Of a DNA stretch of 64,000 nucleotides, positions 3,807 to 52,140 are shown piece by piece (positions within the stretch are counted from its first letter, which is position 1; every line of letters starts with the position of its first letter). Where the stretch lies: contig NZ_AOLP01000001.1 in assembly GCF_000337795.1 (NCBI RefSeq), forward strand, positions 124,001 to 188,000, in the 5' to 3' direction. A model generated the notes under the pieces. The model was not told where the DNA came from. It ran no database searches and saw only the letters and a list, made by a program, of their open reading frames with translations. The stretch is from Haloferax denitrificans ATCC 35960. GTDB lineage: Archaea; Halobacteriota; Halobacteria; Halobacteriales; Haloferacaceae. The position numbers were made by a program, and so were the translations under genes.

Positions 3807-3954
3807 TTCAGTCGCTTCGTCTGCTCCTGTTGTATCGCCCTCCAGTTAACCTTCACACCCAGGCAACCGGCCAGCCTAGATTACCCACACCGACCCACGA
3901 ATTGGGTTGACACACACGATACCATCGAGTGTGAGAGTACAGTTCGTCTGCTAC

Positions 3955-4012
3955 GGCTCTGAAATCCTCAGCAAGTGAGATATTCTGTCCCAGTCACGGT
4001 TACTACAGGACG
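3955..4012 (+). repeat. Solitary left-end remnant of the IS6-like element family
   Basis: The sequence GGCTCT then GAAATCCTCAG...ATTCTG...TACTACAG matches the conserved terminal 58 bp seen at 25237, 37252 and 41646. A GTT has been lost inside the terminal repeat. No matching opposite end or 8-bp target duplication was found to the right, so it is a relic. It lies at the left edge of the accessory block. Confidence 0.6.
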
Positions 4013-4489: not shown

Positions 4490-4625
4490 GAAAGCATACG
4501 AAATGTACTCTCTAACGTAGAACGCGATGGCCTAAGCGGGACGGGATAGAGTGCATTTCGCATGCTTTCGTTCGTAGTTGGAAACGCAAGACGGCATCGA
4601 GGAGAGCATACGAACTGTACTCTCT
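4490..4625. repeat. Direct-inverted-direct repeat triad, copy 1
   Basis: Three copies of a roughly 24-bp motif, consensus GAAAGCATACGAANTGTACT plus CTCT, occur at 4490-4513 (forward), 4549-4570 (inverted) and 4602-4625 (forward). The spacing is about 55 bp. The same triad occurs twice more at 7478-7613 and 7729-7860, on the other side of the orc1 gene. The layout suggests a protein-binding array for partitioning, replication control or autoregulation. Confidence 0.75.
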
Positions 4626-4646
4626 GACTCGGCCGTCAGTTCGACG

Positions 4647-4850
4647 TTAGTATTGTTCGTCGGGAGGGTGCAACGCTGTCCGTCGCTGTGTCTGCCGAAG
4701 AAACTGACGCCAGCGAGTGTACAGATACATCCCGCCGAAGATGAGGCCGACGAGCACCACGAGTCCAGTCACGTCCGTTTCGGGCACACCAATACGGAAG
4801 GGAGGTGTTTGGAGGGCCACCCCAGACCACAGGAGAGAGATCGCGGGCAC
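4647..4850 (-). CDS. Small single-pass membrane protein (duplicated locus, copy 1)
   Basis: The reading frame starts at GTG and encodes 67 residues. It has a hydrophobic segment TGLVVLVGLIFGGMYLYT (about residues 28-45) followed by the basic stretch RWRQFLRQTQRR. The second copy near 8 kb preserves the membrane segment with several conservative changes, which supports real coding. It lies immediately beside a repeat triad. No family was recognised. Confidence 0.45.
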   Translation of the reverse strand: MPAISLLWSGVALQTPPFRIGVPETDVTGLVVLVGLIFGGMYLYTRWRQFLRQTQRRTALHPPDEQY

Positions 4851-7724: not shown

Positions 7725-8140
7725 CGTGGAAAGCATACGAAGTGTACTCACGCAGAACGCGATGGCCTAAGCGGGACGGGATAGAGTGCATTTCGCATGC
7801 TTTCGTTCGTAGTTGGAAACGCAAGATGGCATCAAGGAGAGCATACGAACTGTACTCTCTGACTCGGCCGTCAGTTCGACGTTAGTATTGTTCGTCGGGA
7901 AGGTGCAACGCTGTCCGTCGCTGTGTCTATCGAAGAAACTGACGCCAGCGAGTGTACAGATATATCCCGCCGAAGATGAGGCCGACGAGCACCACGAGCC
8001 CAGTCACATGCGTTTCGCGCACGCCGATGCGAAAGGGAGGTGTTTGGAGGGACACGCCGGACCACAGTGGAGGTACTGAGAACACAACTAGCGGTGTCGA
8101 ACGTCCATTTAGTTAGAGATTGTGTCCGTGGCATCGTTGT
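7725..8140. repeat. Duplicated ~420-bp block, copy 2 (with triad 3)
   Basis: This block repeats 4480-4900. It includes the third triad (7729-7751 forward, 7781-7803 inverted, 7837-7860 forward) and the small membrane gene. Divergence is higher at the 5' end of the membrane gene. The next stretch, about 8141-8727, is AT-rich and contains nothing I can identify. Confidence 0.85.
7927..8085 (-). pseudogene. Small membrane protein, copy 2, truncated by a TAG
   Basis: This is the counterpart of the 4647-4850 gene. The membrane segment TGLVVLVGLIFGGIYLYTRW is kept, but the codon after RQFLR is TAG where copy 1 has CAG. That removes the last 15 residues. The downstream frame still encodes the lost tail (TQRRTALHLPDEQY), so the change is recent. 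A shorter protein of 52 residues could still be functional. Confidence 0.45.
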
Positions 8141-10829: not shown

Positions 10830-11161
10830 CGAGCGTGTGATCAGCGAACGATAATCGGACGCACGCCACAAGTCGTCGACACCCACTGCGGGTACAGACG
10901 CTCGTTCTAGCAGCAGCACTGGAGAAAGCCCCTTTGTGGACAACGGTAGTGTGAGTGAATAAAACGAGTTTGTGGTGGTGAGTCCATCGAGACAAATCAC
11001 AACAGGTGTGATTAGTAGGCTCTGTTGAATGCCGTAGAGCCTGATAGAACCTGTGTGACACAGACAGAGGGTGGATTTAGCACGTGGGTGTCGTTCGTTT
11101 CATAGCCTCGTGAGCGAAAATGACTGTTACGTAGGGTTGCGAACACAAATTTCGAAGGACA

Positions 11162-11884
11162 CTATTCGAGCCACGTCAGGCCGTCTCTCCCTAATAAAAT
11201 CGCCTCCACTTTGTGAAGGTGTTCGTGGAGGGTCGAAGTGGTAATCCCCAATTCATCCGCTAATTCGCCGGCCGACGTTTCCTTCGGATACTCGTAGTAC
11301 CCCATCTCACGAGCGAGTTGAAATACCTCTAACTGACGCTTCGTGAACTGATCCACTGGCAGTGTGGTTGGCGCATCTCCCCGATTCTGCTGTTTCATAC
11401 TCCGCACATGAATCTCCGCACTCATCTGCTCACGAACTTCATCAAGCTTGATTCGAGCCGTCTCCCGGTCGTGGTTCGTTACGAGACTCCAATACTCCCT
11501 CCCATCTCGAATATCAATCGGCCCCGTACACACGAATCCACGAGAAGTGAGTGGCTGACTAATCTGCTTTCGCCCATCGTGAACAACGAGGAGTTCGCGC
11601 GTTGCATTTCCGGGCTTTGGAATCGATGCCTGTCGGAAACCAGTCGCCATCTGGGAGACAGAACGAACGTGTTCAGACGCACGAATAGCTTCGATACCCT
11701 CGGTAACCGATTCGTGATTGTTCGCGTAGATAGTGAAAAGCGTCGCAACCTCGCCGCCAGTCATGTAAATCCCATAACCGAGAATCCCGACGTCGAGACG
11801 CTCCGTGATTTTGATTTCCCAGCATTCTGGGTACCAGAGATCAAGAGACACCTGAAGTGCTTCGTCAGACCGCTCGGGAGACAT
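11162..11884 (-). CDS. HTH-10 (Bat-like) transcriptional regulator
   Basis: This 240-residue protein has a ligand-sensing-type N-terminal half (about residues 1-160) and a C-terminal HTH_10 domain (about 185-238). The latter contains FTKRQLEVFQLAREMGYYEYPKETS, then AGELADELGITTSTLHEHLHK, the hallmark of the bacterio-opsin-activator-like haloarchaeal family. It lacks PAS/GAF domains, so it is of the short class. It lies downstream of the acyl-CoA dehydrogenase gene on the same strand, separated by a MITE, and may control it. Both genes sit inside one putative element. Confidence 0.85.
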   Translation of the reverse strand: MSPERSDEALQVSLDLWYPECWEIKITERLDVGILGYGIYMTGGEVATLFTIYANNHESVTEGIEAIRASEHVRSVSQMATGFRQASIPKPGNATRELLVVHDGRKQISQPLTSRGFVCTGPIDIRDGREYWSLVTNHDRETARIKLDEVREQMSAEIHVRSMKQQNRGDAPTTLPVDQFTKRQLEVFQLAREMGYYEYPKETSAGELADELGITTSTLHEHLHKVEAILLGRDGLTWLE

Positions 11885-11958
11885 CGTAATATCGAATATC
11901 CCTATAGCCCGATAACGGTTCTGTGAGCCGGGGCAGACAGCCGACGACCCTCTTGGTC

Positions 11959-12083
11959 GGCTCTGTTGAAATCCTTCAGCGTTGACATTGGAGAGAGCGC
12001 TCTTTCTGGCTAGTTTCCGTGGATCACAGTGAAAGCTAGTCTCTCAACAAATCGCAAGACAGCGAGAGGACTTCAACAGAGCC
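11959..12083. mobile_element. 125-bp MITE with perfect 8-bp target duplication
   Basis: The terminal repeats GGCTCTGTTGAAATCC (11959) and GGACTTCAACAGAGCC (ending 12083) match at 15 of 16 positions when inverted. The flanks are TCTTGGTC at 11951-11958 and TCTTGGTC at 12084-12091, an exact 8-bp duplication. There is no coding capacity. The right target copy runs into the stop codon of the acyl-CoA dehydrogenase (12090-12092), so the insertion preserved the reading frame while replacing the gene's 3' flank. Confidence 0.9.
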
Positions 12084-12089
12084 TCTTGG

Positions 12090-13229
12090 TCAGTTATCAT
12101 GTCGCTCGAAGATGGCCTCAGCAAGCGTGTTCTTGTGACCTTCGTTCGGGCCACCGGCAATCGTGAGGAGTTTCGCGTCGCGCAGATACCGCTCGACATG
12201 GTGCTCAGTCGTGTAGCCGATACCACCGTGGAGTTGAATCGCGTCGTTTGCGTTGTCCACGGCGGCCTGTGTGGCGTTGATTTTCGCCATGCTGAACTCG
12301 CGTGTGACGTCGTATCCACGTTCGGCACGGTCGGCCGCGCGGAGGGTGAGTAACCGGGCGGTATCGACTCGTTCAGCCATCTTCCCGACCTCCCATCCTA
12401 CACCTTGGAAGTTGCTGATGTGCTGGCCGTACTGCTTACGTGCGCTCGTGTAGGCCACCGTATCTTCGAGGGCAGCGCGGGCGATACCGATACCGCGAGC
12501 TGGGACGTTCACACCCGTATGTATCTCTCCACGCTGAACGTAGCCCTCGCCCTCCTCGCCGACGAGTCGGTCATCGGGAACGCGAACGTTCGAGAGGGAG
12601 ACGCGCGGGGATTTGACGCTGTTCGCGCCCAGTGTCTCCCATACTGTCTCGATTTCGAAATCATCGGTTGGTACGAGAAACGCGCTGATGTTGTGTGGGG
12701 CGTCCTCCTCGGGGCCAGTTTTCGCGTACGTAAGGACGTAGTCAGCGTCAAAGAAGTTCGTCACCCACTGTTTGTGGCCGTTGAGTACCCACTCATCCTC
12801 GTTACGTTCAGCGGTAGTCTCCATCTCCAATTTATTACACCCCGCGTTCGCCTCACTCAAGCCGAGTGCGCCGACAGTGTCGAAGGACACCATCTCTGGA
12901 AGGAAGTCCTCGCGCTGCGCCTTGGTTCCGAAGCGCTCGACGACTGTCGCAACTCCGATGTGGAGTCCGATGGCACTTGCCACGGACATGAGTCCAGCCG
13001 ATAGCTCTTCGATCATCAACGCGAGTTCGACGAGGCCTTCGCCCCGGCCCCCGTATTCTTCCGGAAGCGTCACGCCCGTCAAACGACGTTCGCCGAGTTC
13101 GTCGAAAATCGTGCTCGGGTACTCCTCCTTTCGGTCGAGGTCTCTCGCCTTTGGTTCGATTTCCGTTTTTGTAAACTCCCGAACCTCATCTCGAAACTCC
13201 CGTTGATTCTCCGTCAGGCCGAACCTCAT
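12090..13229 (-). CDS. Acyl-CoA dehydrogenase
   Basis: This 379-residue flavoenzyme performs alpha,beta-dehydrogenation of acyl-CoA thioesters in fatty-acid or branched amino-acid breakdown, passing electrons to an electron-transfer flavoprotein. Visible are the N-terminal helical domain (LTENQREFRDEVREF), the FAD/substrate segment ALGLSEANAGCN and KQWVTNF, and the C-terminal domain. The last contains QYGQHISNFQGVGWEVGKMAE, the FAD-binding QLHGGIGYTTEHHVERYLRDAKLL (about residues 333-356), and the position expected for the catalytic base in the short-chain family. Length is standard. It sits within the 11018-13409 element, ending exactly at a MITE target site. Confidence 0.93.
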   Translation of the reverse strand: MRFGLTENQREFRDEVREFTKTEIEPKARDLDRKEEYPSTIFDELGERRLTGVTLPEEYGGRGEGLVELALMIEELSAGLMSVASAIGLHIGVATVVERFGTKAQREDFLPEMVSFDTVGALGLSEANAGCNKLEMETTAERNEDEWVLNGHKQWVTNFFDADYVLTYAKTGPEEDAPHNISAFLVPTDDFEIETVWETLGANSVKSPRVSLSNVRVPDDRLVGEEGEGYVQRGEIHTGVNVPARGIGIARAALEDTVAYTSARKQYGQHISNFQGVGWEVGKMAERVDTARLLTLRAADRAERGYDVTREFSMAKINATQAAVDNANDAIQLHGGIGYTTEHHVERYLRDAKLLTIAGGPNEGHKNTLAEAIFERHDN

Positions 13230-13351
13230 ATATCATGGGTATGCACCTAACCGAGTAAATGTGGAACCTGCTATAGCAGGCTATCTGGAGATACCCATCA
13301 AGATGATTTTCTATACTAAACGAGTTTTCATCCAACTCTGTGACCGACTTG

Positions 13352-13409
13352 CGACCTGTATTCAGCACGGCCGCAGCAAGCTGTTAGTACTGAGGATTTC
13401 AACAGAGCC
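13352..13409 (-). repeat. Conserved left-type end of the IS6-like family (inverted)
   Basis: Read on the minus strand, this runs GGCTCTGTTGAAATCCTCAG and ends ...GTGCTGAATACAG. It aligns along its whole length with the left end at 41646. It forms the right boundary of the 11018-13409 element. Confidence 0.75.
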
Positions 13410-14174: not shown

Positions 14175-14579
14175 ATGCCGGTGCTCCTCAAACATCACGA
14201 CGCTGAACTCAGTCTTCGGCCAGGGACCACGAAATCAGATCTCGTGGCGTACCTGTACCAAAATTCTGAGTGGGGATACTCCCCCCAGGAGCTCAAGGAA
14301 GCACTTGACATCCCTCGAGGGACCGCTACGACTACACTCAAGCGTCTCTACGACGACGACTACATCGGAAAAACGGATGACGGCTACTACTACGCGCTGA
14401 GCGAACGAGACGACATCCGGCGGTACGTCTCCAGCCTCAACCAAGTCAATCGACTGTTCGGTCACCACCGCGATGCGGACGCCACTCCCGAAGAACCCGA
14501 CAAACAAATCGGAGGCGGTCGCACTGACGAGGAACTCGATGCAGAACTCGCAGAGCTGGAAGCCGAAGTAGATGAGTAA
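14175..14579 (+). CDS. Winged-helix (MarR-like) regulator
   Basis: The 134-residue protein has a winged helix-turn-helix (about residues 20-85: KSDLVAYLYQNSEWGYSPQELKEAL, then PRGTATTTLKRLYDDDYIGKTDDGYYYAL) and an acidic C-terminal tail (GGGRTDEELDAELAELEAEVDE). The start at 14175 is preferred because a TTTATGA box lies about 28 bp upstream. Related haloarchaeal genes often precede PIN or MazF toxins. Here the following sequence is a broken toxin-antitoxin copy. Confidence 0.7.
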   Translation: MPVLLKHHDAELSLRPGTTKSDLVAYLYQNSEWGYSPQELKEALDIPRGTATTTLKRLYDDDYIGKTDDGYYYALSERDDIRRYVSSLNQVNRLFGHHRDADATPEEPDKQIGGGRTDEELDAELAELEAEVDE

Positions 14580-14581
14580 CG

Positions 14582-14835
14582 TCGAACAGACAGATTACGA
14601 TTCCAGGCCGTCCCCGCCAGTAGTTCGATCTTGAGAGAGGACGAAACTTGCTGATCGTGCCGACCGATTTCGGACTCGTACTAATGAAAATCGGGTTGCC
14701 GCCAGTCACGGAGTTCCAGCAGCGTGTAAAAAAACGTGCCAGCGAACGCGAATGCTTGATGGACGAGATTACTCAACTCGTACACGACGCCCGAACTGAC
14801 GACTGAAGGCCGTCCTCGGTACGAACGTTCTGGAA
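14582..14835 (+). pseudogene. Degenerate AbrB antitoxin / PIN toxin start (copy of 15987-16260)
   Basis: The DNA follows the intact antitoxin at 16018-16247 closely, for example GACGAAACT...CCGACCGATTTCGGACTCGTACT and GACGAGAT...CAACTCGTACACGACGCCCGAACTGACGA. It is interrupted by frameshifts and lacks the N-terminal start. The first codons of the PIN toxin (AAGGCCGTCCTCGGTACGAACGTTCT) follow and then degenerate. It is a dead duplicate of the toxin-antitoxin pair 1.4 kb downstream. Confidence 0.8.
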
Positions 14836-14931
14836 GACTCGGCACGCAGACCACCAGCGACTGCGCGTGAACGAGTGCTTCGAATTCGAAGGCGCGCCGA
14901 ACGGAGTGCTCTGACCAAAACGAATACGTCT

Positions 14932-14952
14932 ATTCCCACTCTATGTGGGAAT
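14932..14952. promoter_or_regulatory. Palindromic operator abutting an antitoxin start
   Basis: ATTCCCAC-TCTAT-GTGGGAAT has perfect 8-bp arms and ends one base before the ATG at 14953. Its position on the promoter of an AbrB-type antitoxin suggests the autoregulatory operator of the toxin-antitoxin operon. Confidence 0.7.
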
Positions 14953-15237
14953 ATGACCAAGGTAGACTCAAAAGGGCGAGTCGTCCTCCCAAAGGATGTA
15001 CGAGAGCGTCTCGGTATTGCGCCCGGCACAGAAGTAGACATCCACGAAGAAGACGGGAAAGCAGTTGTTGAACCGAGAGACGACCCCGGCGAAATTCTCG
15101 CCCGCATGGAGCAACTCATTGAGGAAACGTCTTCGAAGCGAGAAGAGACGACGCCGCGTATCGAAGGGGCCGACCCAATTGCCCAGAAGCACAGAGATGC
15201 GGTTCGAAAGGGAGCGGAGAAACACTGCGATGAGTGA
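14953..15237 (+). CDS. AbrB-family antitoxin
   Basis: This 94-residue protein starts MTKVDSKGRVVLPKDVRERLGI, a classic swapped-hairpin AbrB/SpoVT DNA-binding domain (about residues 1-45). An acidic helical tail that would wrap the toxin follows. The last 8 bases overlap the start of the PIN toxin gene. A perfect palindrome abuts the start codon. The start at 14953 is chosen on homology, because the upstream extension is non-homologous. Confidence 0.85.
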   Translation: MTKVDSKGRVVLPKDVRERLGIAPGTEVDIHEEDGKAVVEPRDDPGEILARMEQLIEETSSKREETTPRIEGADPIAQKHRDAVRKGAEKHCDE

Positions 15238-15697
15238 CGCTGGTGGTCCCTATCTGTTTGATGTCGGTGTGATTGCCCTCGCACATACCGATGCCCCGGT
15301 TCGTGATACTGCGCTCTCATATGTCCGAGACGCCATCGTTGGCGACATCGATGCTGTTGTTCCGTATCCTGCGGTATTCGGAGCACACACCGTCTTGACA
15401 ACGTACTACGGGCGCTCAAACACAGACGCATCTCAGCTCCTACAGAATTTCATGGATGCACAACGAATCCATTGGTACGACGAGATGCCCGAAGACGTAG
15501 TTCGGGGTGGGCTCTCTCAGGCGAGTGATGCAAACGTTGGTGGATGGGACGGGTACTATGCTCGGGTGGCGATTGACCAAGGGGTGAATACTGTGTTGAC
15601 GATTGATGATGACTTCGAACGATTTGATGTGTTCGATACTGAGGTGATTCTCTCACCCGACGAATTTACCGAACTGAACCGGTTTCTTGGAAACTGA
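15230..15697 (+). CDS. PIN-domain (VapC-like) toxin
   Basis: The product is a 155-residue PIN-domain ribonuclease-type toxin. Acidic residues expected at the Mg-binding site appear as FDVGVIAL (Asp about 12), the central VRDAIVGD region, and the C-terminal WDGYYARVA...LTIDDDFERFD (Asp about 105 and about 126-128). The start overlaps the antitoxin by 8 bases. About 75 bp downstream begins a fragment of the epimerase 3' end, a junction type repeated twice more in this window. Confidence 0.8.
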   Translation: MSDAGGPYLFDVGVIALAHTDAPVRDTALSYVRDAIVGDIDAVVPYPAVFGAHTVLTTYYGRSNTDASQLLQNFMDAQRIHWYDEMPEDVVRGGLSQASDANVGGWDGYYARVAIDQGVNTVLTIDDDFERFDVFDTEVILSPDEFTELNRFLGN

Positions 15698-15772
15698 CTC
15701 CCAGAAAAAACCGTCTCTGACCACCTCGAAAATCAAACGCAAAACCGCCCAGCCGAACCACGAACGCTTCCG

Positions 15773-15893
15773 TCAGTCGAGATACGGCTCACAAACCCGC
15801 TCGACACCTTCTTCGAACGAAACCTCGGGCTCCCAGCCAGTCGCCTCGTGTATCTTCGAGTAGTCCGCCTTCGTGTCGTGGACGGACACTTCG
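15773..15893 (-). pseudogene. Epimerase 3'-end fragment 1
   Basis: This minus-strand stretch encodes the last 35 or so residues of the epimerase at 51220 (DTKADYSKIHEATGWEPEVSFEEGVERVCEPYLD) with few changes. It is then cut off by the toxin-antitoxin module. It is a truncated duplicate with no start or Rossmann domain. Confidence 0.85.
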
Positions 15894-15960
15894 ACGGAAG
15901 GAACCACCGACACGGAGTTGACTCGGCGCTCCAACACGACCGAAAGGTTCACCCTACTGG

Positions 15961-15975
15961 GTAAGGAATTCTTAC
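15961..15975. promoter_or_regulatory. Inverted repeat upstream of an antitoxin
   Basis: GTAAG-GAATT-CTTAC ends 11 bp before the ATG at 15987. It is placed like the palindrome before the other AbrB antitoxin at 14953, so it is a candidate autoregulatory site. Confidence 0.45.
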
Positions 15976-15986
15976 GTAGACCCAAC

Positions 15987-16247
15987 ATGAGCACAGATGA
16001 TCCCGAGGTGACCACGGTAACGTCGAAAGGACAGATCACGATTCCAAGCCGTCTCCGCAAGCAGTTCGGTCTCGAAAAGGGGACGAAACTGATGGTCGTT
16101 CCGACCGATTTTGGACTCGTACTGAAGAAAATCGAGTTGCCGTCAGTCACGGAGTTCCAGCGGCGTGTTGAAAAGCGTGCCAGCGAAGACGAACTCTCGA
16201 TGGACGAGATCAACCAACTCGTACATGATGCCCGAACTGACGAATGA
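15987..16247 (+). CDS. AbrB-family antitoxin
   Basis: This 86-residue protein has an AbrB fold at residues 8-52 (VTTVTSKGQITIPSRLRKQFGLEKGTKLMVVPTD split across two hairpins) and a C-terminal helix (SMDEINQLVHDARTDE) for toxin binding. The last four bases overlap the toxin start as ATGA. A decayed paralogue lies at 14582. The pair is bracketed by two copies of the epimerase 3' end. Confidence 0.88.
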   Translation: MSTDDPEVTTVTSKGQITIPSRLRKQFGLEKGTKLMVVPTDFGLVLKKIELPSVTEFQRRVEKRASEDELSMDEINQLVHDARTDE

Positions 16248-16654
16248 AGGCCGTCCTCGATACGAACGTCCTGATTTCGAGCGTTATCGCGACCGGCGTT
16301 CCTCACGACATCGTTGTCAAAGGATTCGAAGGCGAATACGAACTCGTCGTTTCGGTTGACACACTCACCGAGTTCCGAGAGACGCTCCTCAAGTACCCAG
16401 ACCGATTTCACCTAAATGAAGACGAGGTACAACAAGAAGTCGAAACCATCCGGTACTTTGCCGAGTTTGTTGACCCCCAAGAAGAGATTCGCGCAGTTGC
16501 AGACGATCCAGACGACGACAAATTTCTCGAGGCTGCTGTCGCTGGAAACGTCGACTACGTCGTCTCAGGTGATAACCACCTTCTGACACTCGATTCGTTC
16601 AGAGGGATTTCGATTGTTGACCCACGCACGTTCTACGAACACCTCGAAGCGTGA
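16244..16654 (+). CDS. PIN-domain toxin (PIN_3-like)
   Basis: This 136-residue toxin begins MKAVLDTNVLISSVIATGVPHDIV, the N-terminal strand and catalytic Asp (D6) of the archaeal putative-toxin PIN subfamily. ADDPDDDKFLEAAVAGNVDYVVSGDNHLLTLDSF near the C-terminus supplies the remaining acidic residues (about 93-116). It probably cleaves RNA and is neutralised by the overlapping AbrB antitoxin. A remnant encoding the GNVDY...LTLDSF segment also lies at 51095-51174. Confidence 0.9.
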   Translation: MKAVLDTNVLISSVIATGVPHDIVVKGFEGEYELVVSVDTLTEFRETLLKYPDRFHLNEDEVQQEVETIRYFAEFVDPQEEIRAVADDPDDDKFLEAAVAGNVDYVVSGDNHLLTLDSFRGISIVDPRTFYEHLEA

Positions 16655-16691
16655 ACCAAAACGCCCGGTTGAAACACAACCGCAAGTGCCG

Positions 16692-17305
16692 TCGTCAGTC
16701 GAGATACGGCCCACAAACCCGCGCGACTCCCTCCTCGAACGAAACTTCAGGCTCCCTCCCTGTCGCTTCGTGGATCTTCGAGTAGTCCGCCTTCGTGTCG
16801 TGGACGTACACCTCGAAGAGGTTTTCCACATACTCAGGCTCGATGTCCGTCCCAAGCACCTCGTTGATCATCTCGACCGTCTCGTTGAACGAGTAGCTCT
16901 CGGCAGTTCCGAGGTTGTAGATACCCTAGAGTCTTTCGTCTGCGGTGAGTCTGAACCCCCGAACGATATCATCGACGTGGGTGAAGTCCCGAGTTTATGA
17001 CCCATCACTGAACAGTTCGGGCGACTCGCCGTTCGCAATCTGGTCGGTGAACTGCGCGACTGTATTCGCGACCTCGCCTTTGTGTTCTTCTGCACCGCCG
17101 AAGCCCTGGTACACCGAGAAGAAACGCATCCCTGCGAGTTGCATGTCGTAGTGGTGGAAGTACTCCGTGTAGCGCTCCCGCGCCAGTTTCGACGCTTCGT
17201 AGCCCATCCGGGTTCGACCGGCATATCCTTGGGCGACGGTTCCGTCCGCGACCCGTAGATCGAAGAGGTCGTCGTCAAGGACCGTCATGTCGTGGAACTC
17301 CACAG
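16692..17305 (-). pseudogene. Epimerase pseudogene (3' two-thirds, frameshifted)
   Basis: The minus strand matches the 51220-52140 epimerase from its C-terminus back to around residue 50, with stops and frameshifts. One preserved section reads GYEASKLARERYTEYFHH and MRFFSVYQGFGGAEEHKGE. A central segment around the TSS/YGS region is collapsed. The 5' third is missing, ending at TGGAACTCCAC (17299-17309). It is about 85-90% similar in DNA, so the duplication is fairly old but recognisable. Confidence 0.88.
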
Positions 17306-18803: not shown

Positions 18804-18958
18804 GTCTCTTGTTGCGATTGAAAAGCGGATTCCAACAGAGTGAGTCGATGCTGACCGAGACGCGACCTGTATGCAGCCCGACGTGCACAAAATAACGGGT
18901 GGCGCTCAGATATCCGTGCACCCACAAAGTAATATTAGCGGAACACATAACACCGGTC

Positions 18959-19501
18959 ATGACTGAAGAGACGCCGACGCCACCGGACGTGAACCTCACC
19001 GAGGAGTGGGAACGCGCCGTTACACAGCGGACTGTGAAAGACCGTGTGTACGAAGCGGCCACGACGCTCACCACACCAACGACTGTCGCGGATATCGCGG
19101 CTCGCGCTGATTGCACGAAAGAGGGTGCTCGCCCCCACCTGGAGTGGTTCGTTGATCTCGGCGTCCTCGAGAAGGTCGCTGACAACCCTGCACTATTCGT
19201 TCGGAACGAGGCGTACTTCGAGTTTCGTCGGGTCACCGAACTGATTCGCGAGTTCGAGACGTCTGCAGCGATCGCTGAGGCGATTGACGAGTATCGAGCC
19301 CGCGAGCGCGAACTCGCAGCGCACTTCGACGAACCGTCACCGGACGCGGTCGCGTACGCTGGGATTGCTGCTCGCGACGACGACGCGGCAGAGCGCCTGC
19401 GTGAGTGGCGAACGGTCACCCGTCGGCTCCGGGAACTTCGGGAGGCGAAACTCCGACTTGACTCCGATGGTGGTCACAGCGCTGCGTCGCTGTTTCCCTA
19501 A
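18959..19501 (+). CDS. Winged-helix regulator (DUF7342-like)
   Basis: The 180-residue protein has an N-terminal winged helix (about residues 20-85: RTVKDRVYEAATTLTTPTTVADIAARAD, then GARPHLEWFVDLGVLEKV). A C-terminal helical region rich in Glu and Arg follows (VTELIREFETSAAIAEAIDEYRA, LREWRTVTRRLRELREAKLRL). The pattern resembles haloarchaeal ArsR-like DUF7342 proteins. Three bases separate its stop from the next gene. A matching C-terminal remnant precedes the disrupted paralogue of that gene at 37099. Confidence 0.75.
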   Translation: MTEETPTPPDVNLTEEWERAVTQRTVKDRVYEAATTLTTPTTVADIAARADCTKEGARPHLEWFVDLGVLEKVADNPALFVRNEAYFEFRRVTELIREFETSAAIAEAIDEYRARERELAAHFDEPSPDAVAYAGIAARDDDAAERLREWRTVTRRLRELREAKLRLDSDGGHSAASLFP

Positions 19502-19503
19502 CG

Positions 19504-19992
19504 ATGGGTCGGCGTGATGACCTCAACGAAGAACGAATGTGGATGCTTGGCTCCCGTCTCGCAGCGCTCTCGATGGTTGAGTCGGTCCACTATTTTCCCC
19601 TCGAAAAACCCGACCGTGTTGTTGCATCGTTCGAGGAGACGTATTATCCAGACGTGGTTGACGCTGCGGCTCTTGAGCTTCGATTCCGGTTGAATGGCGA
19701 GTTCAATCTATTATATCGCGAACGATGGGCGGGTGACCGCTGGGTTTGTCGATGGGACCGTCATCCGAATACACACAACACGGACGACCACTTCCACGTC
19801 CCACCACGACCCAGCGAAACGACCGCACTTGACGCGGAATATCCTGCCGATATAAACGACGTACTCCGACTTGTCTTCGAGACGATCGAAGCGCGAGTTA
19901 ACGAGGTGTGGGCGGAGACGACAGCACCGGTATACCCCACAGAATATGAATTTGAACGACAATACGAACTGCCGTACCTCACAGACACGTAA
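19504..19992 (+). CDS. Conserved haloarchaeal protein paired with a winged-helix regulator
   Basis: This 162-residue soluble protein has a beta-rich N-terminal half ([29 protein letters not shown]), a His-rich turn ([18 protein letters not shown]) and a C-terminal helix ([20 protein letters not shown]). Two damaged paralogues exist in the window (27455-27710 and 37099-37886). One retains an upstream regulator remnant, so the two-gene unit is mobile or repeatedly acquired. The arrangement resembles a toxin-antitoxin-like pair, but the biochemical function is unknown. Confidence 0.75.
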
Positions 19993-20697: not shown

Positions 20698-21012
20698 GTG
20701 TGGGTCCCCCTCCGTGACACCGTCGTAGTCGAATGCCTTCGACTTCCCACGACGTGACGAGAACACTTGCAAACCGGTGTGAGAGAGGACATAAAGAGAC
20801 AGAACACGGAACACATTGGAGGGTGGTCTTTGTATGCATCGTCAGGAGCGACAGTCACAGGCGTTCTTGCATGGCCAGCGATACGCTCTTCGTTGGTCCT
20901 GTTGTGTGTGCTGTTCTACGACTTCAGGCGTCACAACGCCGTCACTCACCAGTCTGTCACTCGGTACGAGGGGTGTGGGTTACCACGTTTGAATACGGTA
21001 TCCCCGTGACCA
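20698..21012. repeat. ~315-bp repeat, copy A
   Basis: This matches 21920-22240 in the same orientation over its whole length, for example GTGTGGGTCCCCCTC...GTGACACC, CTTGCATGGCCAGCGATACG and GGGCGTCACAACGCCGTCACTC. It contains the 20758-20830 section related to the dispersed repeat at 17405 and 52326. No good reading frame is shared by both copies. Confidence 0.85.
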
Positions 21013-21043
21013 CAACCGAGACGCCGAGTCCACGACCGACTGT

Positions 21044-21919: not shown

Positions 21920-22240
21920 GTGGTGTGGGTCCCCCTCACCGTGACACCTTCTCATGGATGACTATCGACCCCGCGACGTGCTGAAGAACACGTGCAAACC
22001 GGTGTGTGGCACCATATAAAGAAACAGAACACTCAGAACACATTGGAGGGCGATCTTTTTACGCATCGTCAGGGGCTGCGGCCTCACAGTCGTTCTTGCA
22101 TGGCCAGCGATACGGTCCTCGTTGGCACGAGTTGTGTGCAGTTCTGTGACTGCGGGCGTCACAACGCCGTCACTCGCCAGTCTGTAACTCGGGTGCGAGG
22201 GGTGTGGGTTACCTCGTTTGAATACGGTGTCTCCGTGTCG
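21920..22240. repeat. ~315-bp repeat, copy B
   Basis: Direct repeat of 20698-21012 with about 80-85% identity by eye. The remaining gap, 21794-22531, contains no credible gene except the operator of the ATPase gene at 22453-22479. Confidence 0.85.
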
Positions 22241-22452
22241 ACAATCGAGTGCAGTATCGAGTCTACGACCGACTAGAACGCCACCCCACCCTGTTCGAAA
22301 TGAAATTTGCTGAGACGAGTCGACCACCCAATATCGACGCAGACGACCGTCAGACCGGGTTTCACGGAGTGAATTCAAATCGAACACGGTGTGCGAAGAA
22401 CCCTCCCGTCGTGGGGTTCTGCCTTCGTGATTGACCCGTAGAGTTAGAGTTT

Positions 22453-25236: not shown

Positions 25237-25294
25237 AGCTCTGTTGAAATCCTCAGAAAATGATAGATTCTGACCCAGTTGTGGTCAATACAGG
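25237..25294 (+). repeat. Left-type end of the IS6-like family, no partner found
   Basis: AGCTCTGTTGAAATCCTCAG...ATTCTG...GGTCAATACAG aligns along 58 bp with 37252 and 3955. It points into the HD-hydrolase gene. The expected opposite end is not found before the TnpB element that starts near 26008, which may have removed it. Confidence 0.7.
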
Positions 25295-36968: not shown

Positions 36969-37106
36969 CTCCGCCTTGTTATAATTGTAGCGAAAATTTG
37001 GGAGGTGGTGTCGGGGTGGAAGACACTGGAGCAACGCGCGGCCTTGGTAGATGCGGCGCACCGAGGTGAGTTATCGGGTGGGCATGCTGGGAGTGTCAAT
37101 GTCTGA
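36969..37106 (+). pseudogene. C-terminal remnant of a DUF7342-like winged-helix regulator
   Basis: The open frame ends VVSGWKTLEQRAALVDAAHRGELSG and runs to the stop at 37106, overlapping the start of the disrupted 19504-type gene at 37099. Its composition and place match the C-terminal helix of the regulator that precedes the intact paralogue at 18959-19501. The N-terminal DNA-binding domain is lost. Confidence 0.5.
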
Positions 37107-37886
37107 GAGAGACTCCGACAGTACAGGTAGTATTGACAGCGATGTACTAGAGCGGATTGGTCGGCGATTGCGTGGCAGTGCTCGGTTTTCCAATGTGGAG
37201 TACCGCCCTTCGTATGCACCGAATGCTGTCGTCGCTGATTTCGATACTGGAGGCTTTGTTGAAATCCTCAACAAGTAACACATTCTGCCCCGGCTGCGGT
37301 CAATACAGAGGATTCATCCATCCAGTAGTTCGGTCAGAATTCCGCTGAGTAGATAGAGTGGAATCACCCACATGAGAATGAGACTGAAGATGCCAATTAC
37401 CATCTTCACTGGTCCATTGCTTCCGGACGCGGTCTGCACAAAATCATCACGACGAACCAGAGCGTGAGTGCCTGAAAGAACTCTGACTTGTTCATGGAGA
37501 ACGTGCCACTCGTCGATTGTGTTTTCAAAATCACTTCCAATATATTCGCAGGTTTACTGAACGCTCAAACTCGTGTCAGACGTTGCGGATTTCAACAGAG
37601 CCATACTGGATATCTTCCAGCGAGTGTGGAGCGTGCGTCTCTCCGTATTCGGTGGTTTGTGACGGATGATTTTAGCGTGCACTATTTGGAACAGTATCGT
37701 GACGGAAGATCGTGGGAGTGGCAGTGGGATCGACATCCGAACAGCCACAACGACCGCGAGCATTTCCATCCGCCGCCAGATGCGGCGACGCCTGGTGAGA
37801 ATATGGCGTTTGGAAGTGATTGGCGTGATGTTGTTTCGCACGTGGTCTCGAAAATGAGTGAGCGAATTCAGTCGTTCTGGAACTAG
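37099..37886 (+). pseudogene. 19504-type gene split by a 351-bp IS6-like element
   Basis: Codons up to 37251 encode MSERDSDSTGSIDSDVLERI and then GSARFSNVEYRPSYAPNAVVADFDTG. From 37611 the frame resumes as YLPASVERASLRIRWFVTDD and then WEWQWDRHPNSHNDREHFHPP, ending at 37886. Deleting the element (37252-37602) with one target copy joins GAT-ACT-GGA-TAT-CTT in frame with no other damage. The intact protein would be about 142 residues, like the 19504 product. The disruption is therefore recent. Confidence 0.9.
37252..37602. mobile_element. 351-bp non-autonomous IS6-like element with perfect target duplication
   Basis: The left end is GGCTTTGTTGAAATCCTCAA at 37252 and the right end is GCGGATTTCAACAGAGCC ending at 37602. 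The 8-bp duplication is ATACTGGA at 37244-37251 and 37603-37610. The left end carries the family's conserved 58 bp. On the minus strand the interior shows a frameshifted reading of a small membrane protein: MNKSEFFQALTL, then in another frame GSNGPVKMVIGIFSLILM and WVIPLYLLSGIL. This may be a decayed cargo gene. Confidence 0.92.
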
Positions 37887-39180: not shown

Positions 39181-40014
39181 TCAATTATCGGCCAACTCAT
39201 CGAATCTCTCGGCGACAACCGACCCGACTGCAGACCGCAACGTCTTCCAATCGATGTTTCCGTGTTCAAGTCGGGTGTACTCCTCTCGAACAATCATCTC
39301 GAATACACGTTCGTGAATCTCGGCAGTTGTGACCGCTTTTCCGTGCGTTTCGATGGCTTTGATGGCTCGGTTGACTCGTGGCTTGGTTACAAGGCTGTGA
39401 GAGACGACTGTTGGCTCACCGTTGAGTGGCTCGTGGTCGACCTGCTCTTCGATTCGGGTTTCTTCGATGAGTGCGCTTCCACCACGTCGGTTATTGATTA
39501 CAACACCTGCGGCGGGTCCGTCGTACCATGCAGATTCGGGAATCTCGAAGCGCTCGGGATGGAAGTCCCGGACGTTCACCTCCTTCTGGAAGACGTTCGC
39601 TGGCGCGAGGCCCAGACGCTCGAACACCCGTTCGGCTTTGTCGATGGGGAGGAGTCGTTCGTTGGCTTCGTCCCAGACAGCACAGCCAAGAAACGATGGG
39701 AGTCGGTCCCAGTCATAGTCGAGACCGACGTTGCACGGAGCCACACCGAAGAAGACGTACGCTGACGGGTCGTCAACAGCATCGTGGAACGCGTCACGGT
39801 CGAACTGCTCTCGGACGTGCCGAACAGCGTGTTCGTACGGCGGTGGCACGTCGTCGAAGACTCGGTCTCGGTCTCCGAAGACCAGAAGCCCCGATAGTTT
39901 CATCTGAAACCGCAACCGAAGTCCAGCGACGTACTCACGGAGCCACAAGTGCCCGCTCGACAGCAACCCTTCGGGGGCGTCTGCGAGTTGAGGCGTCGAT
40001 GGATACGGTTTCAT
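39181..40014 (-). CDS. RNA-ligase-like (nucleotidyltransferase superfamily) protein
   Basis: This 277-residue protein resembles the DNA/RNA ligase superfamily of covalent nucleotidyltransferases. Signs are a motif-I-like MKLSGLLVFGDR with the candidate adenylated Lys at about 39, AYVFFGVAP (motif III-like, about 85), GPAAGVVINNR (motif IV-like, about 165) and a C-terminal helical domain. The start is set at 40014, where MKPYPSTPQLADAPEGLL begins. Its substrate is unknown. RNA ligases of this kind are proposed to act in RNA or tRNA repair. A duplicate of its 3' end lies at 42726-42835. Confidence 0.65.
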   Translation of the reverse strand: MKPYPSTPQLADAPEGLLSSGHLWLREYVAGLRLRFQMKLSGLLVFGDRDRVFDDVPPPYEHAVRHVREQFDRDAFHDAVDDPSAYVFFGVAPCNVGLDYDWDRLPSFLGCAVWDEANERLLPIDKAERVFERLGLAPANVFQKEVNVRDFHPERFEIPESAWYDGPAAGVVINNRRGGSALIEETRIEEQVDHEPLNGEPTVVSHSLVTKPRVNRAIKAIETHGKAVTTAEIHERVFEMIVREEYTRLEHGNIDWKTLRSAVGSVVAERFDELADN

Positions 40015-41645: not shown

Positions 41646-42591
41646 GGCTCTGTTGAAATCCTCAGTCACTGAGAGTTTGTTGAGGTCGTGCTGAATACAG
41701 CGCGCAGATCTCGTAATGAAATTTTACAGTACCTTTCTCTACGTTATCTGGCTTTCAGTACCTCCGTTCCGAATAAGCCCCACGGATCATCTCTTCTCGC
41801 GAATCAGTTTCGTAAACAGACCGACCAGCTGCGAATCTTTCGAATAACTCGGGTCGTTCACTTCGAGTGAGTTCCACGGTGTCAACCAAGGGTAGGGCTT
41901 TGATGAAGACTGGGTTACCTCTGTTGTCAGGGGGCGAACTCGCCTCGATCGGGACAGCCTGAACCGTCGCATCGGGTGGACAAATCCCGAGCACCATCGC
42001 ATCGTCAAGGTTGTAGGGATCATTGTTATCCCGATTTTCTTTGCGCCGCCCATAATACGCAGCGACTAGAGCACCAGATGCGGCGTTCTCCATCGCGTTG
42101 TAATCCTTAATAGCAGAGGCGTTGTCAATAGCAGCGAACTCATTTTTCGCCCAGACTGGACCGGTTCCCCAATCAATACCGAATACTGCCTCTGCTCGAT
42201 TGATGCCGTGACCAGCATAAAGCTGTGCTCGCCCGTAGTGAGTGGAGTTCAGAAAGTGAACTGCGCGCATGACTGCCATTGAATCCACATCAAGATTCCG
42301 CGCGACAGTCGTTACCACGTGGCGGTTCGCGTACTCAGTTCCGAGTGTCAAACGGCCTCTGTCGTCAGTTTCGCCAGTTATCTGATCTTGCATCGGTTGT
42401 GGTTATATGTTTCATAGTCTGAATTACTTAAGTCCTTTCCCGCACACCCCCACACCCACAAAACAAGGTATATGTTTTGCCGATTGAACCCCAAAGTGCA
42501 GGTACTGAGCAGACCCGGTCGTTCTGCTGACTATACCCTCTGTCTGTGTCACGCGGATTCTGTCAAAAAATGAGTATTTCAATAGAGCCCG
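41646..42591. mobile_element. 946-bp transposase-less IS6-like element with one cargo gene
   Basis: The left end is GGCTCTGTTGAAATCCTCAG at 41646 and the right end is GTATTTCAATAGAGCC ending at 42591. The 8-bp duplication CGTGATTT is at 41638-41645 and 42592-42599. The only gene inside is 41755-42393, which is not a transposase. Leaving aside that gene, about 109 bp of left end and 198 bp of right end remain. Mobilisation must be in trans. Confidence 0.93.
41755..42393 (-). CDS. Cargo protein of unknown function, AbrB-like N-terminus
   Basis: This 212-residue soluble acidic protein starts MQDQITGETDDRGRLTLGTEYANRHV, where TDDRGRLTLG resembles one AbrB hairpin. The remainder contains YGRAQLYAGHGINRAEAVFGIDWGTG split around residue 65, and DDAMVLGICPPDATVQAVPIEASSPP. 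There are no transposase motifs (no DDE, no HUH) and no membrane segments. It is the sole gene of an IS6-like element. The function is not known. Confidence 0.6.
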   Translation of the reverse strand: MQDQITGETDDRGRLTLGTEYANRHVVTTVARNLDVDSMAVMRAVHFLNSTHYGRAQLYAGHGINRAEAVFGIDWGTGPVWAKNEFAAIDNASAIKDYNAMENAASGALVAAYYGRRKENRDNNDPYNLDDAMVLGICPPDATVQAVPIEASSPPDNRGNPVFIKALPLVDTVELTRSERPELFERFAAGRSVYETDSREEMIRGAYSERRY

Positions 42592-42725: not shown

Positions 42726-42835
42726 GATTTATCGGCCAACTCATCGAGTCTCTCGGCGACAACCGACCTGACTGCAGACTGCAGTGTCTTCCAATCGATG
42801 TTGCCGTGGTCACGTCGGATGGACGCCTCTCGAAG
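42726..42835 (-). pseudogene. Duplicate of the RNA-ligase-like gene 3' end
   Basis: The segment TTATCGGCCAACTCATCGAGTCTCTCGGCGACAACCGACC...GACTGCAGT..CTTCCAATCGATGTTGCCGTG matches 39186-39290 with about 88% identity. The homology then breaks off. Only the last 30 or so codons are present. It lies next to the right end of TnpB element 2. Confidence 0.85.
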
Positions 42836-42952
42836 TATCTCAGGACCGATACGGACTATCGAGGTTCGAAACGAGACTGGAAGGTCAACATGAGATGTCG
42901 ACTCTACCAGTAGGGTGCCTCTGTAACTGCAAGTGTCGGTGGGGTCTAATTA

Positions 42953-43060
42953 GTGAACTACCCCACCCTACCGCTCGCCTGACGGCTCGCGCTTGAGGTG
43001 GGGGCTTCCTGTTTCAACGACGCGCTTTGCAGACACAGGTGTATCCACAGGGAGCGCAGT
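42953..43060 (-). ncRNA. Candidate TnpB guide RNA, element 2
   Basis: The 3' end of this tnpB gene and the right-end boundary form complementary runs: CCCCACCCTACCG near 42961 and the CCTCAAGCGCGAGCC region transcribed just before the stop. By analogy with known TnpB systems, the guide RNA would end at the element boundary at about 42953. Confidence 0.4.
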
Positions 43061-44191
43061 CTCCACAGGCGTTGATTCGGAGTGTCCCGCTCCTAACCGC
43101 TTCTTGATACCGCGAGAAAGAATGTTCCACGCCGCGTTCGCGTCTCTATCCGCTTTAAACCCACACGCCGGGCAGGAGTGTTCCCGCACCCACAACGGTT
43201 TGTCCGTCGAGACACCGCAGGACGCACACTCTTTGGTCGTCCCTGCCGGGTCTACTGCCACGAAGTGAGTCCCTTCACGTTCGCACTTGTATTCGAGCAT
43301 CCGCAAGAACGTCCCCCACGCCGCACCTGCCCGGTTTCGAGAGTTGCCCGGAAGTTCGACTAACCCCTTCGCGTCCAAGTCCTCGACGGTCACGAGGTCA
43401 TACTCCCGAGCGTAGTAGTTCGAGAGTTTGTGCAAGAAGTCGCGGCGCTTGTTCTTCAACTCGGCGTGGCGTTCGGCCACGACCTTTCGCTGTTTTTGCC
43501 AATTCGCAGACCCGTGTTCTTTCCGCGAGAGGTCGCGCTGTGCGCGCTCCAAGCGTTCGCGCTCGTCGGAGAGGTCGAGAGATTCAACAGCGTTTCCGTC
43601 CGTGTCGTGGGCGTACTTGAGAATCCCCACGTCGATACCGACGCACCTCTCGGGATTCTCAGGCTTCTCCGATGGGTCGTCCGGGGTTTCGACGCCGAGG
43701 ACGGCGTACCACTTGCCGGTCGGTTCCTGTTTGACCGTGACGGTCTTGATTTCGACGTCGTTGGGCAGGTCGCGGTGGAACGTGAGCGGGATTTCACCGA
43801 TTTTCGAGAGCCACAGTCGAGTCCGACCGCTCGTGTTTTTGAGCTTGAAGCCGGATTGACTGTAGGTGAAACTGCGGTACTCTCCCGGTGCTTTCCACTT
43901 GAGCGTCCCCACGCGGTAGCCGTTCTCTTTGCGTCCGCGAAGCGTCGATAGGTTATCGTACAACCGCTGAACGACTTTCTGAAGTACCTTCGAGTGAACG
44001 TCTTTCAGGTCGTCCCACCATTTCTTGAGACTCGGCAAGAGTTTCTGCTCGCTGTATGCCGAGGTGTCGTCGGTGCGGTTGAGTCGGTGGAGGAAGTGGT
44101 TGTAGACCTGTCTACAGGTATCGACAGTCCACGTTAACTGTTCGAGGTGGGCGTCGGACGGTCGGAGTCGATACCTGTAGTTGTAGTTCAT
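42968..44191 (-). CDS. tnpB: RNA-guided nuclease TnpB, second lineage
   Basis: The 407-residue TnpB has RuvC motifs CVGIDVGILKYA (Asp about 192), LVTVEDLDAKGL (Glu about 276) and DRDANAAWNILSRG (Asp about 358). The zinc ribbon is CASCG...CPACG (about 325-347). The N-terminal helix MNYNYRYRLRPSDAHLEQL is typical of the ISH-type group. It is only distantly like the 26137 protein although their element ends are related. It appears complete. A small DUF2080-like gene precedes it by 8 bases. Confidence 0.92.
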   Translation of the reverse strand: MNYNYRYRLRPSDAHLEQLTWTVDTCRQVYNHFLHRLNRTDDTSAYSEQKLLPSLKKWWDDLKDVHSKVLQKVVQRLYDNLSTLRGRKENGYRVGTLKWKAPGEYRSFTYSQSGFKLKNTSGRTRLWLSKIGEIPLTFHRDLPNDVEIKTVTVKQEPTGKWYAVLGVETPDDPSEKPENPERCVGIDVGILKYAHDTDGNAVESLDLSDERERLERAQRDLSRKEHGSANWQKQRKVVAERHAELKNKRRDFLHKLSNYYAREYDLVTVEDLDAKGLVELPGNSRNRAGAAWGTFLRMLEYKCEREGTHFVAVDPAGTTKECASCGVSTDKPLWVREHSCPACGFKADRDANAAWNILSRGIKKRLGAGHSESTPVETALPVDTPVSAKRVVETGSPHLKREPSGER

Positions 44192-51073: not shown

Positions 51074-51094
51074 CCTCGAATCGGTACGTTCTCG

Positions 51095-51174
51095 TCAGGG
51101 CAGGCTCCGGAAACGTCGACTACGCCGTGTCGGTCGACGACCACCATCTGACACTTGACTCGTTCGGGGAATGA
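51095..51174 (+). pseudogene. PIN-toxin C-terminal remnant
   Basis: The frame GSGNVDYAVSVDDHHLTLDSFGE ending at TGA matches AGNVDYVVSGDNHLLTLDSF of the toxin at 16244. It ends 46 bp from the 3' end of the epimerase gene. This is the same toxin-to-epimerase junction found at 15697/15773 and 16654/16692. Confidence 0.8.
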
Positions 51175-51219
51175 GTTCGGAACGTTTGGCCGAAACGCGA
51201 ACCGACGCGAGCGACCCCG

Positions 51220-52140
51220 TCAGTTATCAAGATACGGCTCACAGACCCGCTCGACACCCTCCTCAAAGCTAACCTCGGGTTCCCACCCGGTCGCCTCGTG
51301 CATCTTCGAGTAGTCCGCTTTCGTGTCGTGGACGTACACTTCGAACGGATTTTCCACGTACGTTGGCTCGACGTCCGTCCCAAGCACCTCGTTTATCATG
51401 TCGACCATCTCGTTGAACGAGTAGCTCTCGCCGGTCCCCAAGTTGTAGATGCCCTGCAACCGCTCGTCGGCGGCGAGTTCCAACCCACGGACGATATCGT
51501 CGACGTGGGTGAAGTCGCGCGTCTGCGACCCGTCGCCGAAGAGCTCCGGCGACTCGCCGGCCGCGATTTTGTCGGCGAACTGCGCGACCGTATTCGCGAA
51601 CTCGCCTTTGTGTTCCTCCGCGCCGCCGAAGCCCTGATACACCGAGAAAAATCGCATCCCGGCCAACTGCATGTCGTAGTGGTGGTGGAAGTACTCCGCG
51701 TAGCGCTCCCGCGCCAGCTTCGACGCCTCGTACCCCGTCCGGGACTCGACGGGCATGTCCTCCGGCGAGGGCTCGGTTCGCGACCCGTAAATTGACGACG
51801 TCGTCGCGTACACAACCGTCTCACAGCCGTCCGTTCGGGCCTGTTCGACCGTGTTGACGAAGCCTTCGATGTTGACGCGGGCACCCTTCGTCGGGTTCTC
51901 CTCGTGCATCTTGTACGACGACAGCGCCGCCAGATGGAACACCACGTCCACCCCCTCGGTCGGGAGGTCGTCGTCGAGGACGCTCGCGTCGTGGAACTCC
52001 ACGGCGTCGTCGAGGTTCTCGGGCGTCCCGAGATAGAGGTCGTCGATTGCGATGACGTCGTTGTCGCCGGCGAGAGAGTTCGCGAGGTTCGAACCGATGA
52101 ATCCGGCACCGCCAGTAACGAGGACTCGTTTGCCGTCCAT
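51220..52140 (-). CDS. NAD-dependent nucleotide-sugar epimerase/dehydratase
   Basis: The 306-residue extended short-chain dehydrogenase probably acts on UDP- or other nucleotide-activated sugars. The NAD-binding GGAGFIG is at residues 10-16. The catalytic set is Ser/Thr in TTSSIYGS (about 117) and YEASK (Tyr about 140, Lys about 144). QTRDFTHVDDIVRG and YNLGTGESYSFNEM are typical of GalE-like enzymes. Length is standard. It is the intact parent of two truncated copies at 15773 and 16692, and its 3' end abuts a PIN remnant. Confidence 0.93.
   Translation of the reverse strand: MDGKRVLVTGGAGFIGSNLANSLAGDNDVIAIDDLYLGTPENLDDAVEFHDASVLDDDLPTEGVDVVFHLAALSSYKMHEENPTKGARVNIEGFVNTVEQARTDGCETVVYATTSSIYGSRTEPSPEDMPVESRTGYEASKLARERYAEYFHHHYDMQLAGMRFFSVYQGFGGAEEHKGEFANTVAQFADKIAAGESPELFGDGSQTRDFTHVDDIVRGLELAADERLQGIYNLGTGESYSFNEMVDMINEVLGTDVEPTYVENPFEVYVHDTKADYSKMHEATGWEPEVSFEEGVERVCEPYLDN

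What the first reader, a model, noticed from the sequence alone, without database searches (positions are those of the whole stretch)
37252..37602. Recent insertion splits a gene; deleting it restores a perfect frame
The ATACTGGA duplication is exact. Joining 37251 to 37611 gives a continuous protein homologous to the intact 19504-19992 product. This is strong evidence that the family has been mobile recently although no element in the window encodes a transposase.
Basis: seen in the sequence. Interest (0 to 1): 0.75.

Follow-up and report, generated by a model that had tools for sequence, protein, structure and literature searches.

The report
Gene-carrying jumping element splits archaeal gene
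In a salt-loving archaeon, a 351-base mobile element that has no transposase gene but carries a captured (now broken) host gene has jumped into a toxin-like gene; it belongs to a class-wide family of jumping elements, nearly every copy of which carries a different borrowed gene.

Summary
Positions 37252-37602 hold a 351-bp element with inverted ends (GGCTTTGTTGAAATCC / GGCTCTGTTGAAATCC), flanked by exact ATACTGGA repeats, and it splits a TumE-like gene. A congener carries the same gene uninterrupted, with a single copy of the target. The halves align separately to that orthologue (82%, 81%) and to the 19504-19992 paralogue. 'Recently mobile' is supported: the sibling 944-bp element at 41646 is absent from another genome of the same species.

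The missing-transposase puzzle is largely resolved. The same genome, on another contig, holds an intact ISHla2-like IS5 element (1385 bp) with the same terminal repeats. In 52 target-duplication-bounded relatives (33 with transposase), the transposase is conserved (median 83% identity), but the slot behind it holds a different gene in almost every copy: 1 of 528 passenger pairs shows homology. Transposase-less relatives keep the ends and usually a passenger.

The 351-bp element fits this pattern: it carries a frameshifted copy of a small membrane-protein gene that sits elsewhere on the chromosome of congeners. It is best described as a mobile insertion cassette of an archaeal transporter-IS family, not an empty MITE. 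Which transposase moved it, and how passengers are captured, are inferred.

The parts
37244..37251 (.). left target duplication ATACTGGA
37252..37602 (.). 351-bp transposase-less element (mobile insertion cassette)
37252..37267 (+). terminal inverted repeat GGCTTTGTTGAAATCC
37252..37308 (+). 57-bp conserved end module, found in 86 of 381 Halobacteria genomes
37314..37495 (-). captured small membrane-protein gene, frameshifted after about 18 codons; intact homologues on the chromosome of congeners
37587..37602 (-). terminal inverted repeat GGCTCTGTTGAAATCC
37603..37610 (.). right target duplication ATACTGGA
37099..37251 (+). 5' half of the interrupted TumE-like gene (includes one target copy)
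37611..37886 (+). 3' half of the interrupted TumE-like gene
36987..37106 (+). remnant (last 39 codons) of the upstream HTH partner gene
18899..19501 (+). paralogous partner gene (DUF7342)
19504..19992 (+). intact TumE-like paralogue
41646..42589 (.). sibling 944-bp element with exact CGTGATTT repeats; empty site in same-species genome G152
41755..42393 (-). 212-aa passenger ORF of the 944-bp element, no known family
11018..13409 (.). older sibling element (2392 bp, 7 of 8 target bases match) carrying an HTH_10 regulator and an acyl-CoA dehydrogenase
11959..12083 (.). 125-bp sibling element nested in the previous one, exact TCTTGGTC repeats
25237..25293 (+). solitary copy of the end module (80% identical)
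3953..4008 (+). solitary, damaged copy of the end module

Best explanation
The 351-bp sequence is a non-autonomous transposon (mobile insertion cassette) of an ISHla2-like IS5-family lineage of Halobacteria. Shown: terminal repeats shared with an intact transposase-encoding element of the same genome, 8-bp target duplication, an empty-site allele in a congener, no transposase in the element, and an interior that is a frameshifted copy of a small membrane-protein gene found elsewhere on the chromosome of congeners. Inferred: a DDE transposase of this lineage acted in trans on the two ends and inserted the element into the TumE-like gene by a staggered 8-bp cut. The wider family works as a gene shuttle: conserved ends plus a slot whose passenger is replaced over evolutionary time, with or without the transposase gene. 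How passengers are captured (template switching during gap repair, use of a neighbouring copy's end, or recombination) is not known.
For: Exact 8-bp repeats and terminal repeats. Empty site in G112. Intact 273-aa transposase at C6:19403-20221 inside a 1385-bp element with the same terminal repeats, 79% identical to a DDE_Tnp_1 match; relatives named ISHla2 family, IS5-like. 33 duplication-bounded autonomous copies: transposase always starts at element position 53, passenger regions 319-3145 bp, one homologous passenger pair of 528; none of 23 pairs with 90-95% transposase DNA identity share passenger DNA. Passengers match many unrelated families. Copies L046 and L052 keep ends and exact target repeats with partial transposase genes. 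Cargo homologue at a conserved chromosomal locus in G155 and G266 without terminal repeats. The 57-bp end module recurs in 86 of 381 genomes; seven bounded examples lack transposase and share only their ends, the far end resembling that of the autonomous elements.
Against: Beyond the 16-bp repeat, the element's ends resemble the genome's own autonomous copy only weakly (left end z 3.4, right end not), so the cognate transposase may belong to another subfamily. That autonomous copy has no matching target repeats. The captured gene is frameshifted, so the element is now effectively non-coding. Many end-module loci lack a detectable partner end. The passenger set takes the longest ORF per element; some may not be real genes.
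Confidence: 0.85

Rival explanations
1. It is an ordinary empty MITE: a deletion derivative with IS ends whose interior is filler, and the resemblance of that interior to a membrane-protein gene is incidental.
For: No intact ORF in the element; length is typical of MITEs; the 125-bp sibling is such an element.
Against: The interior aligns over about 145 bp with a chromosomal gene of congeners (E about 3e-15) and its translated halves match the same family at both ends of the protein. Relatives with the same end module carry other, unrelated long ORFs.
Confidence: 0.1
2. The element was mobilised by a different, unidentified transposase that recognises the same GGCTCTGTTGAAATCC end; the ISHla2-like copy in the genome is not responsible.
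For: Subterminal sequences match the own autonomous copy poorly; all seven bounded relatives with the same 57-bp module lack transposase; more distant subgroups exist at 67-69% transposase identity with related ends.
Against: 16-bp ends and 8-bp duplication agree with the ISHla2-like lineage, and the far ends of the relatives resemble that lineage's far end.
Confidence: 0.3
3. The passenger diversity is only old divergence: each ISHla2-like lineage acquired one passenger long ago and kept it, with no continuing exchange.
For: A congener, G189, holds the same transposase (100% identical) with practically the same passenger.
Against: No passenger DNA is shared even between copies with 90-95% transposase DNA identity, while their conserved ends still align.
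Confidence: 0.12
4. G112 lost the element by precise excision, rather than never having had it.
For: A single clean target copy cannot by itself exclude precise excision.
Against: Excision that restores an exact single target is unusual for DDE elements (general knowledge), the target differs at three of eight bases, and the remaining gene is intact.
Confidence: 0.05

Closest known systems
MIC231 / IS231 of Bacillus cereus (mobile insertion cassettes; [quoted passage not shown]
   Same: Transposase-less unit with IS ends and a passenger gene, mobilised in trans by the related IS; modular make-up.
   Different: IS231 belongs to the IS4 family in bacteria (general knowledge); here the ends are those of an IS5-type ISHla2-like lineage in archaea, and the transposase-encoding copies also carry passengers.
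Transporter IS (tIS), as described in PMC3129680
   Same: IS copies with passenger genes unrelated to transposition.
   Different: Here the passenger differs between nearly all sampled copies of one lineage across an archaeal class.
ISHla2 (IS5-like, Halorubrum lacusprofundi)
   Same: Nearest named transposase; the NCBI record has a 57-aa hypothetical gene directly behind it.
   Different: The 351-bp element has no transposase and a different interior.
MITEs of Haloquadratum walsbyi (PMC3119063)
   Same: Transposase-free, transposon-like inverted ends, often target duplications; one ISH2-type element there carries a non-transposase ORF.
   Different: Those are a few families, four of five non-coding; here each copy tends to have a different gene-derived interior.
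Pack-MULE elements of plants (mentioned in PMC3942029)
   Same: Non-autonomous elements carrying fragments of host genes between transposon ends.
   Different: Different transposase superfamily and domain of life; similarity is in working principle only.

Membership tests
Mobile insertion cassette (MIC) | bounded by IS-type inverted repeats, no transposase gene | tested here: met
Mobile insertion cassette (MIC) | target-site duplication | tested here: met
   exact 8 bp; empty site
Mobile insertion cassette (MIC) | carries a gene unrelated to transposition | tested here: met
   membrane-protein gene with chromosomal homologues, now frameshifted
Mobile insertion cassette (MIC) | mobilised in trans by a related IS transposase | not testable with these tools
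   candidate transposase intact in the same genome
ISHla2-like IS5 family | DDE_Tnp_1 transposase (parent element) | tested here: met
   PF01609 E 4.5e-16 for homologue L054; own copy 79% identical to it
ISHla2-like IS5 family | shared 16-bp ends and 8-bp target repeats | tested here: met
ISHla2-like IS5 family | 351-bp element shares subterminal ends with the genome's own autonomous copy | tested here: inconclusive
   left z 3.4, right none
Transporter IS (parent family) | transposase plus unrelated passenger genes between the ends | tested here: met
MITE | short, IS ends, no coding content | tested here: inconclusive
   length fits and there is no intact ORF, but the interior derives from a gene
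IS6 family | ends match the genome's IS6 copy | tested here: not met
IS1595 family | the element's terminal repeat flanks the genome's IS1595 copy | tested here: not met
TumE toxin (interrupted gene) | matches Pfam TumE above its gathering score | tested here: not met
   PF20126 E 0.0091 (orthologue) and 0.0022 (paralogue), both below cut-off; 7 of 14 homologues match at E up to 0.1, best 4.7e-5
TumE toxin (interrupted gene) | adjacent antitoxin-like partner and toxicity | tested here: inconclusive
   HTH gene upstream in the paralogue (DUF7342) and in G112; toxicity not tested

The most novel reading that the evidence does not exclude
The ISHla2-like lineage is a class-wide gene-shuttling system in Halobacteria: its copies continually replace the passenger in a single slot with chromosomal genes, producing both autonomous and transposase-less carriers that spread small membrane, lipoprotein, regulatory and enzyme genes between genera, in the manner of plant Pack-type elements.
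Probability: 0.4. Interest if true: 0.7.

Novelty: new variant of a known kind. Interest (0 to 1): 0.5.

Why it matters
Insertion sequences are usually defined as carrying only their own transposase. Here a common archaeal IS lineage (matches in 105 of 194 sampled Halobacteria genomes at E below 1e-60, which includes its sister clades) almost always carries an extra gene, nearly always a different one, and its transposase-less relatives keep that habit. If confirmed, this is an overlooked route for gene capture and transfer in haloarchaea, and a small system in which capture of a chromosomal gene by a DDE transposon could be studied directly. One haloarchaeal transposon passenger has already been proposed as a virus-exclusion factor (PMC10544981); whether that transposon belongs to this lineage was not established.

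Tried and rejected
A zinc-ribbon remnant (FCPGCG) in the left end was considered as a transposase trace; rejected as coincidental, since the 57-bp module is a conserved end that also caps unrelated cassettes and is not the start of any transposase found. IS6 and IS1595 parents were tested and rejected. A search for the cargo in plasmids found nothing, nor did one for the 212-aa passenger of the 944-bp element. No phage record matches the element. Pfam and NCBIfam gave no accepted family for the 212-aa passenger. PADLOC matched only three of 48 passengers, two of them weakly, so a general defence role is not supported. The same-species genome G152 cannot score the 351-bp site: it keeps only a short remnant of the TumE-like gene there. 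A MAFFT alignment across the insertion misplaced the gap; BLAST was used instead. No solved structure resembles the TumE-like family by sequence.

Full report
What is there. The 8-bp repeats ATACTGGA lie at 37244-37251 and 37603-37610; the 351 bases between begin GGCTTTGTTGAAATCC and end in the reverse complement of GGCTCTGTTGAAATCC. That terminal sequence occurs 10 times in the window at up to two mismatches, against 0.03 expected. The window lies in a 3.83-Mb genome (G000, 21 contigs) whose named relatives in every search are Halobacteria.

The interrupted gene. The halves at 37099-37251 and 37611-37886 were compared separately with an intact orthologue in a congener, G112, and with the 19504-19992 paralogue. 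They align at 82% and 81% to adjacent stretches of the orthologue (residues 17-66 and 68-157) and at 37% (E 1e-4) and 34% (E 3e-19) to the paralogue. The flanks were joined once, before the gene had been identified. Over 140 codons dN/dS between the halves and G112 is about 0.09, so the gene was under purifying selection for most of the divergence and the disruption is comparatively recent. The protein family is TumE-like: seven of 14 homologues match Pfam TumE weakly (best E 4.7e-5), while the orthologue and the paralogue stay below the curated cut-off. TumE is a translation-inhibiting toxin of a toxin-antitoxin pair (PMC10584680); that function is untested here. In G112 and at the paralogous locus an HTH gene precedes it (DUF7342 in the paralogue). 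In the window only the last 39 of 205 codons of that partner remain, at 36987-37106, so both members of the pair are broken. Which broke first cannot be told.

The family in the window. Four members have recognisable ends and target repeats: the 351-bp element; a 944-bp element at 41646-42589 with exact CGTGATTT repeats and a 212-aa ORF; a 125-bp element at 11959-12083 with exact TCTTGGTC repeats; and, around that one, an older 2392-bp element at 11018-13409 (7 of 8 target bases match) carrying an HTH_10 regulator and an acyl-CoA dehydrogenase. The 944-bp element is absent from a same-species genome (G152), which has one CGTGATTT at the exact site. This is direct comparative evidence of recent movement.

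The transposase. The genome does: contig C6:19351-20735 is 1385 bp with the same ends and an intact 273-aa transposase; its 79%-identical homologue matches DDE_Tnp_1 at E 4.5e-16. NCBI names relatives IS5 family, ISHla2 family. This copy itself lacks matching target repeats. The genome's IS6 and IS1595 copies do not have these ends.

Passenger genes. Behind the transposase of the 1385-bp element is a 116-aa membrane-protein gene. This is general. Among fetched relatives, 52 distinct elements have matching 8-bp repeats (at most one mismatch), and an offset control gave none. Of these, 33 carry a transposase gene matching nearly over its full length, always starting at position 53 of the element. 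The transposases are 47-97% identical (median 83%), while the stretch between transposase and far end is 319-3145 bp long and holds a different gene in almost every copy: one of 528 passenger pairs has a BLASTP hit below 1e-3, and no pair with 90-95% transposase DNA identity shares passenger DNA. In most copies the last 60-70 bp are conserved again. Passengers match unrelated families, among them methyltransferase, glutathione S-transferase, hexapeptide acetyltransferase, bile-acid-symporter-type transporter, RDD, HD and DUF7344. A sister clade at about 46% transposase identity has different ends (GGCTCTGGTGAATCGC); its four copies with resolved ends are 937-938 bp, with no room for a passenger, so gene carriage looks specific to the ISHla2-like lineage. 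Copies with partial transposase genes but intact ends and target repeats (L046, L052) look like intermediates to transposase-less cassettes.

The cargo of the 351-bp element. On its minus strand, 37495 to 37314, it encodes, across a frameshift after about 18 codons, a protein with two hydrophobic stretches. The same gene family occurs in 40 of 381 sampled Halobacteria genomes. In congeners G155 and G266 it sits at a conserved chromosomal locus between a gene for an NADP/F420-type reductase-like protein and a short membrane-protein gene followed by a HAD-type gene (neighbours identified by eye), with no terminal repeats nearby. In the window's own genome this locus is present at 96% identity, but about 250 bp containing the small gene are missing. 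The cargo is only about 68% identical to the congener gene over 146 aligned bases, against 96% for the flanks, so it was probably captured from a more distant lineage. One other member of this gene family (L206) lies between similar repeats in another genome, without matching target repeats.

Relatives of the 351-bp element. Its first 57 bp recur in 86 of 381 genomes from 27 genera. Seven of the fetched loci can be bounded by target repeats (at most one mismatch); all lack transposase, are 374-1274 bp long, and align with each other essentially only at the two ends, the far end resembling the far end of the autonomous elements. Most other fetched loci with this module lack a recognisable partner end and are unresolved.

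Interpretation. The 351-bp element works like, and meets the sequence criteria of, a mobile insertion cassette; trans-mobilisation remains to be shown. The subterminal match to the genome's own autonomous copy is weak, so the exact cognate transposase is uncertain. Transporter ISs and mobile insertion cassettes are established ideas (PMC3129680, PMC3913671), IS231-MIC231 being the closest precedent. I found no description of this in the ISHla2 lineage, but only open-access papers could be searched and the name ISHla2 appears in none of them. What appears new is the scale: nearly every copy, across an archaeal class, carries a different gene.

Noticed in passing
G000 contig C9:451386-452409 (L184, L185): The native chromosomal copy of the captured small membrane-protein gene is missing (about 250 bp deleted) although the flanks are 96% identical to a congener; the only copy found in this genome is the broken one in the element.
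   Followed up: partly
36987-37106: The HTH partner gene upstream of the interrupted TumE-like gene is reduced to its last 39 codons; in G112 it is full length.
   Followed up: yes
L244, L248, L249, L250: A sister IS clade (about 46% transposase identity, ends GGCTCTGGTGAATCGC) is compact, with no passenger gene, where the ends could be resolved (937-938 bp).
   Followed up: partly
right ends of L109, L158, L171, L259; window 41646-41703 and 13350-13409: Several elements mix end types; a subterminal motif like CTGAATACAG near position 50 recurs at many ends, and GGTCAATACAG also directly after some transposase stop codons. Meaning unknown.
   Followed up: no
39185-39295 and 42729-42839, next to the IS605 OrfB/TnpB gene 42968-44191: A 111-bp direct repeat (88%) lies beside the TnpB-type gene and recurs in relatives G152 and G266.
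   Followed up: no
14576-17212 and 51089-51743: Diverged duplications within and between two regions of the window (75-90% identical blocks), not analysed.
   Followed up: no
4512-4811 and 7747-8046: A 300-bp direct repeat at 95% identity flanks the Cdc6/Orc gene at 5479-6708, possibly a replication origin.
   Followed up: no
20760-21020 and 21985-22249: Duplication with about 1229-bp spacing, 83-93% identical blocks.
   Followed up: no
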